Source: a virus
DNA: 64,000 nucleotides
Virus record (IMG/VR): IMGVR_UViG_3300050015_000481
Coordinates: 1-64,000 of that record
Reading direction: 5' to 3' (one strand)
Part shown: positions 1-10,569 of the stretch, in pieces
How the letters are laid out: every line of letters begins with the position of its first letter
Numbering within the stretch: position 1 is the first letter of the stretch
Made by a program: the position numbers and the translations under genes
The notes under the pieces: generated by a model
What the model was told of the DNA's origin: nothing
Seen by the model: only the letters and a program-made list of their open reading frames with translations
Databases searched by the model: none

Positions 1-696
1 GAGTTTCAAAATACTCAAAAAAATGATAAAAAATATGGTAAGTTTGTTGATTATTCGGTTAAATGTATTTCATGTGCTAAAATTTTTATTGTAAATGAAC
101 GTGAAAAACTACACCCACAAAAGAAAAAATATTATTGTTCACGAAGTTGTGCTAATAAAAGAAAGCATTCACAAGGAACTAAAGATAAAATTTCATTAAA
201 ATTAAAAACCAAAAAAAGATTAACTGTTAATTGTGAATATTGTGGAAACAGTTTCGAGCAGAAAAGAGAAACACAAAGATTTTGCGGAAATTCATGTTCG
301 ACTAAATTTAGAATGCCGTTAAGGGGTTATGAAAGAATTGGTGGTTTATGTTCAGTAAAGTCACAAAACAAAAGAGGTAAAAATGAAATATTTTTTGCAA
401 AACTATGTTGTGATAAATTTAAATCAGTTCTTTGTAATGAACAAATTTTTAATGGATGGGATGCAGACGTAATTATTGAAGATTATAAAATTGCAGTATT
501 ATGGAATGGTGTTTGGCATTATAAAAAAATATCGAAAAATCATTCATTATTACAAACAGAGAATAGAGATAAATTAAAAATTAAAGAAATTGTTAATTGT
601 GGATATGAACCATATGTTATAAAAGATTTAGGAAAATTTAATAAAACCTTTGTTATTAAGGAATTTGAAAATTTTAAGAAATATTGCGGGGTGTGA
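1..696 (+). CDS. Homing-type endonuclease, zinc fingers plus VSR/EDxHD-like nuclease (5' end cut off)
   Basis: The frame is open from base 1 to the TGA at 694-696, so the start lies left of the window; the first internal ATG (313) would miss half the protein. The visible part has two treble-clef-like zinc modules (CISC...CSRSC and CEYC...CGNSC), then a PD-(D/E)XK/VSR-like core with DADVII, a hydrophobic strand and the WNGVWHYKK segment, followed by a QxxxxDxxK helix and a GYxPYVI strand. This layout is typical of free-standing phage homing endonucleases that cut DNA and spread by repair. The last codons overlap the start of the tRNA-Met-like gene, so the element abuts a tRNA. Family is fairly sure; exact specificity is unknown. 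Confidence 0.75.
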   Translation, partial: EFQNTQKNDKKYGKFVDYSVKCISCAKIFIVNEREKLHPQKKKYYCSRSCANKRKHSQGTKDKISLKLKTKKRLTVNCEYCGNSFEQKRETQRFCGNSCSTKFRMPLRGYERIGGLCSVKSQNKRGKNEIFFAKLCCDKFKSVLCNEQIFNGWDADVIIEDYKIAVLWNGVWHYKKISKNHSLLQTENRDKLKIKEIVNCGYEPYVIKDLGKFNKTFVIKEFENFKKYCGV

Positions 697-768
697 GAAG
701 TGGTATCTCAGTGGGCTCATAACCCACCGCTTAACAGCCTCGAAGGTTCAAATCCTTCTCCCGCTACA
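685..768 (+). tRNA. tRNA-Met-like (anticodon CAU), no encoded CCA
   Basis: A cloverleaf can be drawn by eye: acceptor 685-691 with 759-765 (six pairs, outermost T-T mismatch), D stem TGAG/CTCA with a loop containing GG, anticodon stem GTGGG/CCCAC around loop CTCATAA (CAU at 718-720), and T stem GAAGG/CCTTC around TTCAAAT. The variable region is about 14 nt, long for tRNA-Met, and position 26 seems absent. The 3' end reads ACA, so CCA must be added after transcription, which fits the CCA-adding-type domain encoded at 32155. CAU could also mean a lysidine-modified tRNA-Ile. The 5' end overlaps the stop codon of the preceding endonuclease gene. Confidence 0.65.
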
Positions 769-956
769 ATGAAATTGAAAGGTCACGGCATACACTCCGT
801 TGAAAGCAAGTCACAGGAAGACTGCGCCAGTCGATTTCGAGAAATAATGAAGAACTGGTGGTTTTTACAGTATCAATTTGACGGTAAATCAAACTAAAAA
901 CGAAAACAAGACCAACGAATTTCTTCAAAACTTTTAACGTTCTTTAAAATAAAATA
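769..956 (+). other. Gene-poor spacer with small hairpins
   Basis: No convincing gene is seen. An open frame over 700-897 runs through the tRNA and looks non-coding. Short helices can be drawn (for example CCAGT...ACTGG around a CGATTTCG hairpin at about 817-860), so part of a structured RNA may lie here, but I cannot assign a family. Confidence 0.3.
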
Positions 957-1082
957 CGGGAAGATAGTAAAAAGAAATACTATCTCAATATTCTCTTCAA
1001 TGAGAAAACTAATAGTGTTTTCAGTAAATACAAATTGTTTTGAAAACAAAAATTTGAGGCTCGAAACCTCATCTTCCCGCTA
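957..1082 (+). ncRNA. tRNA-like structured RNA, about 125 nt
   Basis: The ends pair perfectly over nine bases (957-965 with 1071-1079). Directly before the 3' strand sits a T-arm (stem TGAGG/CCTCA, seven-base loop CTCGAAA), as in tRNA. Between them, instead of normal D and anticodon arms, are about 90 nt with further hairpins: ATAGTA/TACTAT, TTCTC/GAGAA, GAAAAC/GTTTTC and TTGTTT/AAACAA. It could be a tRNA with an insertion or intron, or a tRNA mimic; bacterial Y RNAs (YrlA) carry such a tRNA-like module, and a Ro60-like gene lies 1.4 kb downstream. No anticodon can be assigned with confidence. Confidence 0.4.
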
Positions 1083-1126: not shown

Positions 1127-1167
1127 GATTGAATACGGGAAAACTGAAAGTGTTTACAGTAATATAC

Positions 1168-1256
1168 GGAGGTTCGAATCCTTCTATCCCCACAAATTAA
1201 TAAAAATTTGGGGATATAGACAAGTGGTAAAGTCAATAGTCAGTTAAACTATGAAC
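1168..1256 (+). tRNA. Possible circularly permuted tRNA (3' half before 5' half)
   Basis: At 1168-1194 is a tRNA 3' half: T stem GGAGG/CCTTC, loop TTCGAAT, acceptor strand TATCCCC and ACA end. No partner for that acceptor strand is seen upstream. Fifteen bases downstream, 1210-1252 is a tRNA 5' half whose first seven bases GGGGATA are the exact complement, followed by D arm GAC/GTC with GG in the loop and a perfect five-pair anticodon stem ATAGT/ACTAT around CAGTTAA. The loop would place GTT as anticodon but has A instead of the near-universal U at position 33. No T-arm follows downstream within 400 nt. Alternatives are two broken tRNAs or a decayed one. Confidence 0.35.
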
Positions 1257-1625
1257 AAAAAAAGCAACAAATACTTTTGAATTATTCCCTAAATTTATAA
1301 AACGGCATGGGTCGTGTCAACGCTAATCGGACAATATTAAACCCAACCCGTTTAAAGTTTTTGGTTGTTGGTATCAGAGTTTTTAAATAAAAACGGGGCA
1401 TACCACCTAACATTTGACGATCTGCTCTTATGGATAAGCGTAGTGACAAGGTTAAGAATGGTTTTTCATCGTAGAAGTACGGTGTTTTTTCAAAAAAAGA
1501 AATAAAGAAGAACTTGTTGTGAATACAGTAATTGAAATTTGCCCTCCATGTGAGAGGGGGCACAAACTACCAAATTACAACTAAACTTCTTCTCTTATTT
1601 GAGAAGAGTAGTTATTCTTTAAAAA
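1257..1625 (+). other. Non-coding stretch with hairpins before the terminator
   Basis: I see no gene. A leftward frame of 93 codons (1282-1563) has biased composition and no family features. Hairpins such as GCCCTC/GAGGGGGC (about 1541-1562) and CTTCTC/GAGAAG (about 1588-1608) suggest this is the 3' part of an RNA transcript ending at the terminator. Confidence 0.35.
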
Positions 1626-1678
1626 ATGGGTGGAGACTTGATGTAGAAATATATCACCTCACCCATTTTTATTTTTTA
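1622..1678 (+). terminator. Rho-independent terminator of the RNA region
   Basis: A ten-pair stem AAAATGGGTG/CACCCATTTT (1623-1632 with 1660-1669) is followed by a T-rich tract. It closes the tRNA-like RNA region before the GIY-YIG gene. Confidence 0.7.
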
Positions 1679-1751: not shown

Positions 1752-2462
1752 ATGGAAAATGAAGTAAAAATATATACATTATCACACCCAATAACTAATG
1801 AAGTTAGATATGTGGGTAAAACGGTTGAATCTTTGGAAGAAAGATTACGTAAACACATATCAAGAAGAGATAATACATATAAAAGTAATTGGATTATTTC
1901 TTTGAAAAAGGAAGGCTTAACTCCAAATATTGAGTTACTTGATGAATGTTCTTTGGTTGATTGGCATTGGCTTGAAAAATATTGGATTTTACAATTTAAA
2001 TGTTGGAATTTTAAATTAACGAATATTTGTGAGGGTGGTAAAGGAAGTGATGGATTGAAACATTCTATTGAAAGTAAAGAAAAAATGAGTCAACGACAAA
2101 AAGGTAAACAATGGAGATTAGGTGCTGTTCTTACTGATGAAACCAAAGAAAAAATTAGATTAGGTAATTTAAATAAAAAAAGAAATCCTGATTCAGTAAA
2201 AAAAATGATAATAACAAAAACTGGCATGTCAACTGGCGTTGGAAGAAAACATACTATGACACATATAAACAATATTAGTAATGGTATGATTAAAATAAAA
2301 GGAAAATCAGTGTCACAATATGATTTAAATATGAATTTTATTAAAGATTGGGCATCAATATCAACTGCCTCAAAAACACTAAAAATACCTAATAGTAATA
2401 TTGTTAATGTTTGTAAGGGTAATAGAAAAACGGCAAAAAATTTTATTTGGATATATAATTAA
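1752..2462 (+). CDS. GIY-YIG homing endonuclease with NUMOD DNA-binding repeats
   Basis: 236 residues. The N-terminal GIY-YIG nuclease is clear: IYTLSHP, then RYVGKT (the YIG strand), the R/H helix, and a Glu in LEKYWI. It is followed by NUMOD3-like repeats (KEKMSQRQKGK and TKEKIRLGN) and a C-terminal NUMOD1-like domain (VSQYDLNMNFIKDWASI...ASKTL), which binds DNA. Such proteins nick or cut specific sites and copy themselves into them. It sits between the RNA region and the Ro60-like gene, whose start is only 14 nt downstream, so it may be a later insertion splitting an RNA-protein module. Confidence 0.88.
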   Translation: MENEVKIYTLSHPITNEVRYVGKTVESLEERLRKHISRRDNTYKSNWIISLKKEGLTPNIELLDECSLVDWHWLEKYWILQFKCWNFKLTNICEGGKGSDGLKHSIESKEKMSQRQKGKQWRLGAVLTDETKEKIRLGNLNKKRNPDSVKKMIITKTGMSTGVGRKHTMTHINNISNGMIKIKGKSVSQYDLNMNFIKDWASISTASKTLKIPNSNIVNVCKGNRKTAKNFIWIYN

Positions 2463-2475
2463 AAATTGTAAAATT

Positions 2476-4110
2476 ATGGAAAATTTAGTACTAACAAAAT
2501 CAAGTTTAGATTTAATTAAATCTTCAATTATTCAAGGACTTGAAACAGCGAGTGGAAGTCGTAGTTCTGCAACTTACTACCACAGCAGAGACGAACAAAT
2601 GAAAGCTATAAGGACTCAGGTTGGGAACTTATATAAACTTTCAAAAGAACTCCCATTGATCATAGCCTCACAAAAAGGTGCTACAGGTCAATTCGTATCG
2701 GAAGTACTGTTCAATGAGTTGAAAAATACTCTAAGGGGTGGAGCATGTAATATTGTTAATCCAATTGACTGGTATGATAATGGTATCAGCGATAAGGCAG
2801 TTCTTACTGCATTGAATAACCTTGGTGAAAATGGTTTACCATATGTTCTGCGTTTATTCGTATCATTGAAAGACGCAAAAGTAAATAACGAAAGAACAAG
2901 AAAAATCATATTGGGTTACATTTGGGGTCAGCCTAACTTGGAATTTTATGCAATGAAATACAGAAACAAAATTGCTGAAATTCTGACTCATGTATATGGT
3001 CAGAAGAAAACCAGCATATTGCTTTCTATTGCACAGAAGCAAGTTGCAATCAACAACACTGTTCTTTTCAACAATGTTTACAGCGAAAAGGAAGCAAAGA
3101 TTGTCAATGATTGTATTGTAAAGTACTTCAATGGCGATGCTACTAAAGCATTCAAATTACTGCTGTTCTTATTTAAAAAGGATGCTGGTGTTGATTTCTT
3201 CGAATTTCCTCTTTTGGCTGAATACCAGAAGGCAAAGGTTGATATCAAAGGTATTAAGAATGTTCCAGAAGAAGTTCTGCTTGGCTTAATTTCATCTGTA
3301 AGACATCCACAGTACCACTCAATGTGGTCAAGTGATATTCAGAAGGAAGCAACTAAGGCTATGATCAGATCAACTGTTCAGGTAACTTCTGTGAACCAGC
3401 AGGTTCGTCAAACCAAATCAACCGCAAAGTTGGGTGTTGAAAAACACGTTGATCTTGAAAAAGCAACTGACTTCTTGGCACTTTACAAGACTGGTTATGA
3501 AACTACTTTCACTGATGGAATTTGGGACGCAATCAACAAACTTGCAGAGAAGAAGAAAATTCAAGGATTCTTCTACCAGAACATCGGTATTATTCTTGAT
3601 AATAGTGCATCAATGACTGGCGACAAGGCTGAGTCAAAGAACACACCAAGATCAATTGCTAATTTCACAGCAATGGTATTGGGTAAATCAGCAAGAATTT
3701 CAACATTGGTGACTTCAGATGAATTTGTAAGTGACATGGGTTCATTATTCATCAACTTACTTAAACTTGAAGGTACAAACAAGTATGATGCGATTTTCAT
3801 CATAACTGATGGATACGAAAACGCATATGATGGTTTGACTAACGAAGTAATTCAAATCTGGAGAGCAGAAACTCAGAGTGTAACACCTATCTTCCAGATT
3901 TCTCCAACTACTGGTGCTGAAATGGGTGGTAACGTAAGACCTTTGAGTCCAAATGTTGTAACTATGGCAATCAATAATCCAGTTGCAATTCAGCCACAGA
4001 TTCAGGCAAGGCTGTTGGAAATCGACACTCCACGTTGGCTTGAAAATCAGGTTCGTGCTTTAGAAGCTGCTCCTGTTAAGAGAACAAAAAAAATAAATGT
4101 AAACGCTTAA
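2476..4110 (+). CDS. Ro60/TROVE-like RNA-binding protein with vWA domain
   Basis: The start at 2476 was chosen because the frame upstream (from 2401) overlaps the endonuclease; this gives 544 residues, close to Ro60/Rsr (about 530-540). The N-terminal two thirds are helical and repeat-like, as in the TROVE ring. The C-terminal third is a von Willebrand A domain with MIDAS motif DNSASM, then TSDEF and a TDGYEN strand end, in the same order as Ro60's DVSASM, FSDEM and TDNETF; an ALYKTGY segment before it also matches Ro60. Ro proteins bind Y RNAs and misfolded RNA and, in bacteria, tether them to nucleases. tRNA-like RNAs lie just upstream. A generic vWA protein is the main alternative. Confidence 0.65.
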   Translation: MENLVLTKSSLDLIKSSIIQGLETASGSRSSATYYHSRDEQMKAIRTQVGNLYKLSKELPLIIASQKGATGQFVSEVLFNELKNTLRGGACNIVNPIDWYDNGISDKAVLTALNNLGENGLPYVLRLFVSLKDAKVNNERTRKIILGYIWGQPNLEFYAMKYRNKIAEILTHVYGQKKTSILLSIAQKQVAINNTVLFNNVYSEKEAKIVNDCIVKYFNGDATKAFKLLLFLFKKDAGVDFFEFPLLAEYQKAKVDIKGIKNVPEEVLLGLISSVRHPQYHSMWSSDIQKEATKAMIRSTVQVTSVNQQVRQTKSTAKLGVEKHVDLEKATDFLALYKTGYETTFTDGIWDAINKLAEKKKIQGFFYQNIGIILDNSASMTGDKAESKNTPRSIANFTAMVLGKSARISTLVTSDEFVSDMGSLFINLLKLEGTNKYDAIFIITDGYENAYDGLTNEVIQIWRAETQSVTPIFQISPTTGAEMGGNVRPLSPNVVTMAINNPVAIQPQIQARLLEIDTPRWLENQVRALEAAPVKRTKKINVNA

Positions 4111-4121
4111 AATATCATACT

Positions 4122-5219
4122 ATGAACAAAAGAGAACTTACAGAAATGTTAAAAGGTTGCCGACCAGTCAAAGACAAGGACGGAAACATCGTAGTTCAGT
4201 CAATTATGAACATGCAGCTTGTTTGCTTAACTGCAGACGCTGAATTCTCATTGGATACTCGCTTTGCGAACCCCTTGACTTCATTAGTATCAAGTAATAG
4301 CACTTATGGTGAGATCACTTTTACTAATAAGGAAAAGAAGGAAGTAATACTTCCTGTTCAAATGGCTGTATTGACTAAACAAAGTGCTCAGAACCACGGT
4401 ATGGTTAAAGCAGGTTACGTTGAACCTAATTCAAGCACCACATATCATGATGCTGGTTGCGTACAGGGTGGACAAACTGGTTACTTCCGTGGTACTCAGG
4501 AATTTCGTATGATTCCCGTATCTATGCGTGAAATGTTATTTGAAAAAGTAGGTTATACTTCTGGCTACCAGAACATTTATCCTGCAATTCAGAAGCTCGG
4601 CTTAGAAACTAAGTCTGGTACTGGTAACTATTTGAACATATACTTTGAAAAATTCGACAAGAAACTCGAACAGTTTATTGCACATTTCGAACGTCCAAAG
4701 AATCTTATTGGTATCATTGTATTGATTGATGGTGAAATTGTTGCAATAGACAAATTCCCTTCATTTACATACGCTGAACAGGTATGGGAAATGATGATCA
4801 GAGACTGTTATGGTTCTTTGGCAATTATTAGTGAAGTGCAGAACAAAACTACTGGTCATCCATTTACTGAAACTTATACTGAGCTTAAAAAGACTCATCA
4901 GACTAATGTTATTGATTTGCTTGAAAAGGCAATGAAAAAGACTAAAAAGTCTATGACTGATGACGTTCAGGAAAGGATTCAGGAAGTTCTTGATTTACAG
5001 TTTGACGCAGTACTTGATACTGAAGGTCAGCCAATAGGAAAGTCTGCTCCAAAGAGTTATGTCTTGAGAGCCGAAGGTTATATTGGACAGGTAATTACCG
5101 AAAATGATTTTAACCATTTGGTATCAATCATCAAAAGGGAGAGATTCAACCCTAATGCTTTCAGGGAAGTAAATGAACTAAGAAAGAAAGCAAAGAAACA
5201 AGAAAGATTCAGTCTTTAA
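4122..5219 (+). CDS. ARPP-1/DUF6569-like protein, partner of the Ro60-like gene
   Basis: 365 residues, starting 11 nt after the Ro60-like stop, so almost surely cotranscribed. The central part resembles the ARPP-1 domain (named from association with ADP-ribosylglycohydrolases and rhodanese-phosphatases): a strand-rich core with a Cys/Gly-rich turn (AGCVQGGQTGYFRGTQEF), then IIVLIDGEIVAIDKFPS followed by an EQVWEMMIRDCYG helix. The C-terminal 120 residues are charged and helical. No catalytic activity is established for the family as far as I know. The operon pairing suggests a joint role with the vWA/TROVE protein. Family call is by eye only. Confidence 0.5.
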   Translation: MNKRELTEMLKGCRPVKDKDGNIVVQSIMNMQLVCLTADAEFSLDTRFANPLTSLVSSNSTYGEITFTNKEKKEVILPVQMAVLTKQSAQNHGMVKAGYVEPNSSTTYHDAGCVQGGQTGYFRGTQEFRMIPVSMREMLFEKVGYTSGYQNIYPAIQKLGLETKSGTGNYLNIYFEKFDKKLEQFIAHFERPKNLIGIIVLIDGEIVAIDKFPSFTYAEQVWEMMIRDCYGSLAIISEVQNKTTGHPFTETYTELKKTHQTNVIDLLEKAMKKTKKSMTDDVQERIQEVLDLQFDAVLDTEGQPIGKSAPKSYVLRAEGYIGQVITENDFNHLVSIIKRERFNPNAFREVNELRKKAKKQERFSL

Positions 5220-5288: not shown

Positions 5289-5318
5289 ATTTTATGATGT
5301 TTTTAAATAAATTCTTTT

Positions 5319-5326
5319 GTATTTAT
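5319..5326 (+). promoter_or_regulatory. GTATTTAT promoter-like element
   Basis: Lies 21 nt before the ATG at 5348, in the usual range for this window, and directly after a terminator. It argues for the 5348 start rather than 5294. Confidence 0.6.
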
Positions 5327-5347
5327 TGTAAAGTAAACCGATCAGAA

Positions 5348-6016
5348 ATGGTCGGATTGCTAATTAAGGGTACGGCTTATAAGTTACGAGTTTTTATGAA
5401 AGAAATGTACACATATAATAAAAATTATAATTCATTTTTTGATGGTGAATTAAATGTTCTTGAAATTAATCGAGAAAAAAAGAACAAATCTTTAACTACA
5501 AATGAATTTATAAAAAAAGCAAAAGAAGTTCATGGAAATAAATATGATTATTCGTCATGCTCTTATATTGCTTTTTCAAAAAAAGTATGTATTTTTTGTA
5601 ATAAACACAAGTCTTTTTTTTGGCAAACACCTACAAATCATTTAAGTGGATATGGCTGTCCTGATTGTGGATATCATAGAACAAATTTTTCTTCTGCGGA
5701 AGAAGAAATAAAAGAATATTTAATTAAAAACAATATTGAATTTATTCATCAAAAAAGATTTGATGATTGTAAAGCACAAAAGAAACTAATTTTTGATTTT
5801 TATTTACCAAGGCATAATACATTAATTGAATATGATGGAGAACAACATTATATTGAAGTTTCAATTTGGGGTGGGAAACTTGGATTAGAAAAAAGACAAT
5901 TTAACGATAAAATTAAAACAGAATATGCAACAAGTAAGGGTTATAAATTATTGCGTATTCCATATACTGAAAGATTATTTCTTTCTGAAGTGTTAAAAAA
6001 TAATATAGCAATTTAA
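5348..6016 (+). CDS. Homing-type endonuclease, zinc-ribbon plus EDxHD/VSR-like nuclease
   Basis: 222 residues from 5348; 5294 is upstream of the promoter element and 5396 is a possible later start. A DUF723-like zinc module (EVHGNKYDYSS...CIFCNKH...HLSGYGCPDCG) precedes a PD-(D/E)XK-like nuclease: FDFYLP, LIEYDGEQHY, a Q/D-K helix and LLRIPY. This domain pair also occurs at 41536 and 61688. These are mobile genes; this one sits between a promoter element and the first fibre gene (6030), which has no promoter element of its own, so it may have inserted into that leader. Confidence 0.8.
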   Translation: MVGLLIKGTAYKLRVFMKEMYTYNKNYNSFFDGELNVLEINREKKNKSLTTNEFIKKAKEVHGNKYDYSSCSYIAFSKKVCIFCNKHKSFFWQTPTNHLSGYGCPDCGYHRTNFSSAEEEIKEYLIKNNIEFIHQKRFDDCKAQKKLIFDFYLPRHNTLIEYDGEQHYIEVSIWGGKLGLEKRQFNDKIKTEYATSKGYKLLRIPYTERLFLSEVLKNNIAI

Positions 6017-9864: not shown

Positions 9865-10569
9865 ATGGCTGTTGTTTATATTTACGGATTAATTGACCCC
9901 AGAAATAAATTAACTATTGAAAATGTTCGATATGTTGGAAAAACAAAGAATGAAATTAATCGTAGATTATCAAAACATGTTGAAGACAGTAAAACAGGAA
10001 TCGCACCAATTCATAAATGGATTCGTAAAATGAAATTGGATGATCAAAGACCCGTTTATATTATACTCGAAGAATGTGACGAAAATACTTGGAAGAATAG
10101 TGAGAGAAAATATATTGAGTTGTTGCGTAAAACAAATCGTTTATTAAACGTTAGTGACGGTGGAGAAGAGGCTGGAAATTATTATCACCCTTCGATTGAA
10201 TTATATTGTTATGATGAAAATGGTGACTTTAAAATAAAATATTTGTCAATGACAGAAGCATGTAATGATGTTCATGTTAGTATGTCTAAAATATCATTGG
10301 CTTTAAATCAAAAAACAAATAAAAGTTCCGCAGGTTATTATTGGTTTACAACACCACAAGAAAAAGAAAACATAGTATTTAGAAAAGCAGCAAGAAGAAA
10401 TATACCAATTGTTCAAAAAACATTAAATGGTGAATTTATTGCTGACTTTAGTGGTCAAGGCGAAGCAGAAAAATTAACAGGTATAAGTTCAAAATTAATA
10501 AATAAGTGTTTAAGAATACCAACATATTCACAAACTAATGGGTATGTGTGGGAATATAAAAATAATTAA
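9865..10569 (+). CDS. GIY-YIG homing endonuclease with NUMOD1-type DNA-binding repeats
   Basis: 234 residues. GIY-YIG core: VYIYGLIDP, RYVGKTKNEINRRLSKH, the HKWIRKM helix and RKYIELL carrying the Glu, ending in LLNVSDGGE. Two C-terminal helix-turn-helix-type units follow (IELYCYDENGDFKIKY...TEACNDV and VQKTLNGEFIADFSG...EAEKL), typical of intron and free-standing homing enzymes. It lies between a promoter element and a glycosyltransferase gene, interrupting the fibre region. Confidence 0.88.
   Translation: MAVVYIYGLIDPRNKLTIENVRYVGKTKNEINRRLSKHVEDSKTGIAPIHKWIRKMKLDDQRPVYIILEECDENTWKNSERKYIELLRKTNRLLNVSDGGEEAGNYYHPSIELYCYDENGDFKIKYLSMTEACNDVHVSMSKISLALNQKTNKSSAGYYWFTTPQEKENIVFRKAARRNIPIVQKTLNGEFIADFSGQGEAEKLTGISSKLINKCLRIPTYSQTNGYVWEYKNN

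What the first reader, a model, noticed from the sequence alone, without database searches (positions are those of the whole stretch)
1168..1256. A tRNA with its halves in reversed order
The 3' half (T-arm and acceptor strand TATCCCC, 1168-1194) precedes the 5' half (GGGGATA, D arm and anticodon arm, 1210-1252) by about 15 nt, and the two acceptor strands are exact complements. Neither half has another partner nearby. This is the layout of circularly permuted tRNA genes, known from some archaea and algae and, as far as I know, not described in phages. The anticodon loop CAGTTAA lacks U33, which weakens the case or points to a special function.
Basis: partly seen in the sequence, partly recalled or inferred. 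Interest (0 to 1): 0.75.

Follow-up and report, generated by a model that had tools for sequence, protein, structure and literature searches.

The report
Phage Y RNA mimicking a tRNA
The back-to-front "tRNA" is real and conserved in dozens of large phages, but it is most likely not a tRNA gene: it is the tRNA-imitating half of a small regulatory RNA (a bacterial Y RNA) made next to a viral relative of the Ro60 RNA-binding protein.

Summary
At 1168-1252 a T arm and 3' acceptor strand precede the matching 5' acceptor strand, D arm and anticodon arm. The same layout lies upstream of one gene in dozens of diverged phage contigs. All 7 acceptor pairs covary across the permuted junction, and so does the tRNA tertiary pair 15-48.

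It is probably not a permuted tRNA gene. The anticodon loop is not conserved (20 loops in 36; U33 in 24), and in 10 of 36 the acceptor strands are joined by a 4-6 nt loop with no CCA. The unit sits inside two stacked stems with a UUUACAGUAA motif that recurs 3-5 times per locus. The gene downstream folds like Ro60: the 13 best Foldseek hits are all Ro60/Rsr/TROVE.

Bacterial Y RNA (YrlA) has exactly this order: terminal stem, T arm, closed acceptor hairpin, D arm. Other phages with permuted units match Rfam YrlA at up to 58 bits, below its cut-off, and many carry TROVE genes.

Best reading: the tRNA-mimic module of a phage-encoded, YrlA-like Y RNA, a new variant with a full anticodon arm and attachment through the variable loop, in an array of such units. 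Binding and function are inferred, not shown.

The parts
1137..1289 (+). whole Y-RNA-like unit (M3) holding the permuted tRNA-like module
   Evidence: conserved in 37 aligned relatives; structure; found by its model at 141 bits
1137..1141 (+). outer terminal stem, 5' strand (GGGAA), pairs with 1285-1289
   Evidence: 99.5% paired, almost invariant
1147..1155 (+). inner stem, 5' strand (AAAGTGTTT), pairs with 1269-1277; followed by ACAGTAA
   Evidence: 97.9% paired, 4 of 9 pairs covary
1168..1184 (+). T arm (GGAGG TTCGAAT CCTTC)
   Evidence: 99.5% paired, 3 of 5 pairs covary
1185..1191 (+). 3' acceptor strand TATCCCC
   Evidence: pairs with 1210-1216; all 7 pairs covary
1192..1209 (+). acceptor loop; 4-23 nt in relatives, with or without CCA
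1210..1216 (+). 5' acceptor strand GGGGATA
1219..1234 (+). D arm with A14, G15, G18G19
   Evidence: 100% paired; G15/A15 covaries with C48/U48 just before the T arm
1236..1252 (+). anticodon-type arm, loop CAGTTAA
   Evidence: stem 100% paired, 5 of 5 pairs covary; loop not conserved
1269..1277 (+). inner stem, 3' strand AAATACTTT
1285..1289 (+). outer terminal stem, 3' strand TTCCC
849..926 (+). related unit M1: same stem motif (GAAGAAC..TTTTTACAGTA ... TTCTTC) around a short insert
   Evidence: hit of model R1 at 848-927 (25 bits)
958..1078 (+). related unit M2: tRNA-like cloverleaf in normal order with the stem motif inserted in its D loop
   Evidence: sequence
1507..1592 (+). related unit M4: same stem motif around a hairpin
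1626..1675 (+). terminator-like hairpin plus T run ending the non-coding region
   Evidence: sequence, conserved in relatives
685..767 (+). tRNA-Met (CAT), initiator-like, first element of the locus
   Evidence: ARAGORN and Rfam, conserved in relatives
2476..4110 (+). Ro60-like protein (helical TROVE-like region plus vWA-like domain), presumed partner of the RNA
   Evidence: AlphaFold model, Foldseek top 13 hits all Ro60/Rsr/TROVE, E 1.8e-5; no sequence-level TROVE match
4122..5219 (+). ARPP-1 domain protein, conserved next gene
   Evidence: Pfam PF20208, 62.7 bits; in 9 of 9 related records of the window's family tested

Best explanation
The locus encodes several Y RNAs of a phage Ro60 ribonucleoprotein, and the permuted 'tRNA' is the tRNA-mimicking module of one of them (1137-1289). 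The RNA's own ends pair to form a two-part stem carrying the motif UUUACAGUAA. On top sits a complete tRNA fold entered through the variable loop, so the T arm comes first, the acceptor stem is a closed hairpin, and the D and anticodon arms follow. Shown: the structure, its conservation, its tRNA-type tertiary pairing, the Ro60-type fold of the neighbouring protein and their linkage. Inferred: that the stem binds this Ro60, and that the tRNA-like module tethers an effector such as PNPase or gates and decoys tRNA-binding enzymes, as known or proposed for bacterial Y RNAs. It need not be circularised, charged with an amino acid or used in decoding.
For: Structure: 99.0% of cells paired, 21 of 34 pairs covarying, same fold found by RNAalifold. 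Tertiary fold: 15-48 is G-C in 37, A-U in 6 and one parsing exception. Linkage: 106 of 109 stored stretches with the Ro60-like gene (stretches of one contig overlap) have the unit 264-2039 nt upstream, median 666; one exception starts too close to its contig end, one (L067) has a GIY-YIG-like gene in its place, one is a distant phage. Protein: Foldseek top 13 are all Ro60/Rsr/TROVE, including Ro60 of Thermus phage phiLo. Precedent: the Rfam YrlA consensus has the same order, stem - T arm - closed acceptor hairpin - D arm; YrlA is described as a 5'/3' stem binding Rsr plus a tRNA-like domain (PMC8394870). Bridge: permuted units of other phages match YrlA over its whole length at 34.8-58.4 bits, and 11 such records have TROVE genes over the Pfam cut-off (4, 7). 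The window-family model finds full-length matches among them (up to 80 bits). Not a decoding tRNA: random anticodons, closed acceptors.
Against: RF02553 (YrlA) gives no match in the window's record at E<=1, and all phage matches are below its gathering score. The Ro60-like protein has no Pfam TROVE match and no detectable profile similarity to the TROVE proteins of the other phages; the Foldseek TM-scores are low (about 0.35). YrlA lacks the full anticodon arm seen here. CCA sits at the right place in 20 of 36 units, which a pure mimic does not need. No expression or binding data.
Confidence: 0.8

Rival explanations
1. A true circularly permuted tRNA gene: the precursor is cut at the variable-loop junction, ligated to a circle, and opened by RNase P and a 3' processing enzyme to give a working tRNA.
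For: Perfect cloverleaf with covarying pairs; CCA at 74-76 in 20 of 36; a linear-order counterpart with the same stem inserted in the D loop; RNA ligases of family PF09414 in 6 of 8 related records; a known archaeal permuted tRNA has a 1-nt intervening sequence, so short loops do not exclude it.
Against: Anticodon and U33 not conserved; acceptor closed by a 4-6 nt loop without CCA in 10 of 36; no known junction type; RtcB not found above cut-off in 8 records; the same stem motif encloses simple hairpins (M1, M4) that cannot be exons.
Confidence: 0.1
2. A piece of a single giant ornate RNA of the GOLLD/ROOL kind that happens to contain tRNA-like domains.
For: GOLLD RNAs also lie near phage tRNAs, one downstream of Met-tRNA, and may carry tRNAs in a linker (PMC12286853); the non-coding stretch is about 900 nt with one terminator-like hairpin.
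Against: No GOLLD or ROOL match at E<=10 in 600-1760, nor at E<=1 in five relatives; units are modular, vary in number and order, and each has its own terminal stem.
Confidence: 0.05
3. A permuted (two-piece) tmRNA.
For: Weak Rfam matches to tmRNA_permuted over T arm and acceptor (18.3 bits here, 25.4 in L053).
Against: Far below the cut-off of 47 bits; a complete D arm and anticodon arm are present, which tmRNA lacks (general knowledge).
Confidence: 0.02
4. Decayed remains of two tandem tRNA genes, or chance.
For: The anticodon loop lacks U33 and the genome has other tRNA-like pieces.
Against: Covariation of all acceptor and anticodon-stem pairs and of 15-48 across many phages.
Confidence: 0.01

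Closest known systems
YrlA, bacterial Y RNA (Rfam RF02553)
   Same: Terminal stem from paired ends; inside it T arm, closed acceptor hairpin and D arm in permuted order; linked to a Ro60-type gene (PMC8394870).
   Different: Here the tRNA-like module keeps a whole anticodon arm and is entered through the variable loop; in the YrlA consensus the stem is entered through the anticodon-stem position. No RF02553 match in the window's record. Several units per locus, attached to tRNA-like modules at different points.
Circularly permuted tRNA genes of algae and archaea
   Same: 3' half before 5' half, short AT-rich intervening sequence, R15-Y48 pair kept (PMC3978253).
   Different: Different junction site, no BHB seen, anticodon not conserved, CCA often absent, no splicing endonuclease known in the host.
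Ro60 of phages, e.g. Thermus phage phiLo (PDB 9l5y), and TROVE proteins in jumbo phages (PMC7824862)
   Same: Phage-encoded Ro60 fold.
   Different: This protein family is not recognised by the TROVE profile, and its RNA partners are not annotated.
GOLLD and ROOL RNAs
   Same: Phage non-coding RNA beside tRNAs.
   Different: No Rfam match; separate small units instead of one large fold.

Membership tests
[quoted passage not shown]
   Outer and inner stems 99.5% and 97.9% paired; transcript ends themselves not known
YrlA / bacterial Y RNA | tRNA-like module with T arm, acceptor hairpin and D arm in that order | tested here: met
   compared with the RF02553 consensus
YrlA / bacterial Y RNA | score above the RF02553 gathering threshold | tested here: not met
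   no match in G000, G001 or G006 at E<=1; best in other phages 58.4 bits of 69
YrlA / bacterial Y RNA | next to a Ro60 (rsr) gene | tested here: met
   linkage in 106 of 109 stretches; Ro60 identity by fold only, Pfam TROVE not matched
YrlA / bacterial Y RNA | binds Ro60 and an effector such as PNPase | not testable with these tools
   needs biochemistry
Circularly permuted tRNA gene | 3' half encoded upstream of 5' half | tested here: met
Circularly permuted tRNA gene | junction at 20/21, 37/38, 50/51 or 59/60 with a bulge-helix-bulge | tested here: not met
   junction lies in the variable loop (44-48); leader and trailer form a 9-bp stem set off by unpaired linkers
Circularly permuted tRNA gene | conserved decoding features (U33, stable anticodon) | tested here: not met
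   U33 in 24 of 36, 12 different triplets, 20 loops
Circularly permuted tRNA gene | mature, charged tRNA with free 3' CCA | not testable with these tools
   CCA encoded in 20 of 36, tight closing loop in 10 of 36
GOLLD / ROOL | match to the Rfam model | tested here: not met
Permuted tmRNA (RF04321) | score above gathering threshold | tested here: not met
   18.3 bits of 47

The most novel reading that the evidence does not exclude
These phages display a set of tRNA mimics with freely varying anticodon loops on Ro60, attached at the ends, the D loop, the anticodon stem or the variable loop, as diversified decoys or gates against host tRNA-cutting defences or for tRNA repair. The stem motif UUUACAGYAA would mark a wider, so far unnamed class of Ro60-bound viral RNAs.
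Probability: 0.25. Interest if true: 0.82.

Novelty: new variant of a known kind. Interest (0 to 1): 0.6.

Why it matters
Apparent permuted or split tRNA genes in phages can be Y RNAs, so tRNA annotation of large phages needs that check. The finding gives a large, alignable set of phage Y-RNA-like units with a diverged Ro60 partner that profile searches miss, which makes it possible to test what Y RNAs do during infection. It also shows a tRNA fold kept in full, down to a tertiary pair, while connected to the rest of the RNA at a new point and with no decoding constraint. The function of bacterial Y RNAs is still open, and phage systems are convenient places to test it.

Tried and rejected
Permuted tmRNA: weak Rfam score only. 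GOLLD/ROOL: no match. Small self-splicing or enzyme-spliced intron giving functional tRNAs: considered seriously because the same stem motif interrupts a tRNA-like D loop in linear order and encloses permuted units elsewhere. Downgraded because it also encloses plain hairpins, acceptors are often closed, anticodons vary, and RtcB was not found above cut-off; ligases of PF09414 are common in these records and not specific. Occurrence in cellular genomes: the only genome-contig hit of the flank motif was a chance match (L109, no T arm follows). Named phage records: no DNA match for the window region; only a 26%-identical relative of the protein, in a 462-kb phage. Similarity of the window protein to the DUF2828 protein of Klebsiella phages: none.

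Full report
OBSERVATION. ARAGORN and Rfam report only tRNA-Met at 685-767. The window is the first 64 kb of an 83,398-base virus record. With the protein at 2476-4110 as bait, 62 loci were found in viral contigs, some in contigs of 300-365 kb. Nearly all carry the same arrangement upstream. To avoid selecting for pairing, units were then picked by the 5' flank motif alone. 45 unique units gave 36 non-redundant ones with 25 different acceptor helices. Pairing across the permuted junction is 97.2%, against 64.3 +/- 2.7% for swapped strands, and 32 of 36 pair 7/7. A 37-sequence alignment shows 99.0% paired cells and 21 of 34 pairs with changes on both sides, reached by none of 500 shuffles. RNAalifold returns the same structure without guidance.

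ANATOMY. From 5' to 3': outer stem GGGAA; AACNN; inner stem AAAGTGTTT; ACAGTAA; short linker; T arm; 3' acceptor strand; acceptor loop; 5' acceptor strand; U8 A9; D arm; anticodon-type arm; A-rich linker; inner stem AAATACTTT; linker; outer stem TTCCC. The base just before the T arm (position 48) and the D-loop base 15 form the tRNA Levitt pair. It is G-C in 37 units and A-U in 6; the one exception, L039, reads as G-C when its D arm is shifted by one base. So the module keeps tRNA tertiary structure although the chain enters and leaves through the variable loop.

NOT A DECODING tRNA. The anticodon-type stem is kept (5 of 5 pairs covary) but its loop is not: 20 different loops in 36, 12 different triplets at 34-36, U33 in 24 of 36. 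The acceptor loop is 4-23 nt long; CCA sits at 74-76 in 20 of 36, and in 10 of 36 the strands are closed by 4-6 nt, for example UUCG. In known permuted tRNA genes the breaks lie at 20/21, 37/38, 50/51 or 59/60 (PMC3978253).

THE LOCUS. The stem motif occurs four times in the window, around 849-926, 1004-1027, 1137-1289 and 1507-1592, and 3-5 times at one place in most related records. In relatives it surrounds a cloverleaf in ordinary order with varying anticodon, short inserts, and the permuted cloverleaf. In 958-1078 it sits inside the D loop of a cloverleaf in normal order.

THE PARTNER. The protein at 2476-4110 has no Pfam or PDB sequence match. Its AlphaFold model (pLDDT 75, pTM 0.69) was compared with the PDB. 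The 13 best hits are Ro60, Rsr or TROVE structures, best E 1.8e-5, probability 1.00, among them Ro60 of Thermus phage phiLo; TM-scores are low, about 0.35. The next gene is ARPP-1 (PF20208), present in all nine related records of this family tested. Of 109 stored stretches with the Ro60-like gene (overlapping stretches included) 106 have the unit 264-2039 nt upstream. In L067 a GIY-YIG-like gene stands in its place, so it is not indispensable.

LINK TO Y RNA. Reviews describe bacterial Y RNA YrlA as a stem formed by the RNA ends, bound by the Ro60 protein Rsr, plus a tRNA-like domain with D, T and acceptor arms, which binds PNPase (PMC8394870). A role as competitive inhibitor of an anticodon nuclease has been proposed (PMC7790460). 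The Rfam YrlA consensus shows T arm, closed acceptor hairpin and D arm in this order. A scan for T-arm-to-D-arm adjacency found 57 units pairing in permuted order among 85 matches, many in phages with other flank sequences. A general scan left 88 candidates without conventional partners; some of these break inside the anticodon stem (by eye, many at 29/30). Such units match RF02553 over its full length: 58.4 bits in G024, 39.6 in Klebsiella phage vB_KpM_FBKp34, 39.1 in G020, 34.8 in G017, all below the cut-off of 69. TROVE genes over the Pfam cut-off were found in 4 of 16 records of one test and 7 of 18 of another, in several cases within a few kb of the unit. A covariance model of the window family finds held-out relatives at 123-135 bits and full-length matches in the other classes at up to 80 bits; ordinary tRNA neighbours give partial matches of about 20-42 bits.

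CONCLUSION. The permuted cloverleaf is most likely the tRNA-mimic module of a phage Y RNA. It is not filed as a member of RF02553, whose score test fails; it works like YrlA and is a new variant with a full anticodon arm and a variable-loop connection. That the stem binds the neighbouring Ro60-like protein, and what the module recruits or blocks, is inference. A permuted tRNA gene processed through a circle remains possible at about 10%.

LIMITS. All phages of the window family are metagenomic. No RNA data were available. Related sequences inflate counts. The Ro60 assignment of the window protein rests on a predicted fold plus genomic context.

Noticed in passing
window 685-767: tRNA-Met looks like an initiator tRNA (first acceptor pair mismatched) and is conserved at the head of the locus in most relatives; a phage initiator tRNA would be unusual.
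   Followed up: partly
window 958-1078: A cloverleaf in normal order whose D loop is interrupted by the same stem motif; in most relatives its anticodon-type loop reads UGA with U33, but a long variable arm expected of tRNA-Ser is missing.
   Followed up: partly
window 1752-2462, 9865-10569 and 5294-6016: Two GIY-YIG homing endonuclease genes and a further endonuclease-like ORF; one lies between the RNA array and the Ro60-like gene. In L067 a GIY-YIG-like gene stands in place of the permuted unit and half of the next.
   Followed up: partly
L316 506-568 and 595-645 (Klebsiella phage vB_KpM_FBKp34): Hairpins with UUACAGCAA and a closing stem match Rfam Dictyostelium Class I RNA (RF01414) at 25 and 24 bits (E 0.017 and 0.043, below cut-off). 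Class I RNAs are held to be unique to social amoebas (PMC7919456); chance or convergence is not excluded.
   Followed up: partly
L316 977-1090: A tRNA-Asp-GTC annotated as 114 nt contains a roughly 40-nt insert with the motif UUUACAGCA between D arm and anticodon arm; an ordinary tRNA-Asp-GTC lies beside it, so the long one may be another Y-RNA-like unit.
   Followed up: partly
L330 1287-2726 (same Klebsiella phage): The gene just upstream of these units is DUF2828/DUF7788 with a weak vWA match; it may be another Ro60-like partner.
   Followed up: partly
L323, LR756500.1 about 103-106 kb: A 462-kb uncultured phage has a 26%-identical relative of the Ro60-like protein, followed by a protein resembling the ARPP-1 neighbour, and upstream a cloverleaf in ordinary order inside the same kind of stem motif.
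   Followed up: partly
window about 1090-1127; L028, L013 and L052 upstream of the permuted unit: Further small conserved modules between the units (for example ATTCCCCGTTGTCCCTGTGGCAACACAAACTTCGGGGTA, and GCAGACAAGCCTCTTGCGAAAGCAAAGTAACTGC) of unknown nature, present in different combinations.
   Followed up: no
L120, L131, L172, L280, L281 and similar loci: Permuted units broken inside the anticodon stem often have normal-looking anticodon loops with U33 (Asn GUU, Thr UGU, Asp GUC, Arg ACG), unlike the variable-loop class; whether any yields a working tRNA is open.
   Followed up: partly
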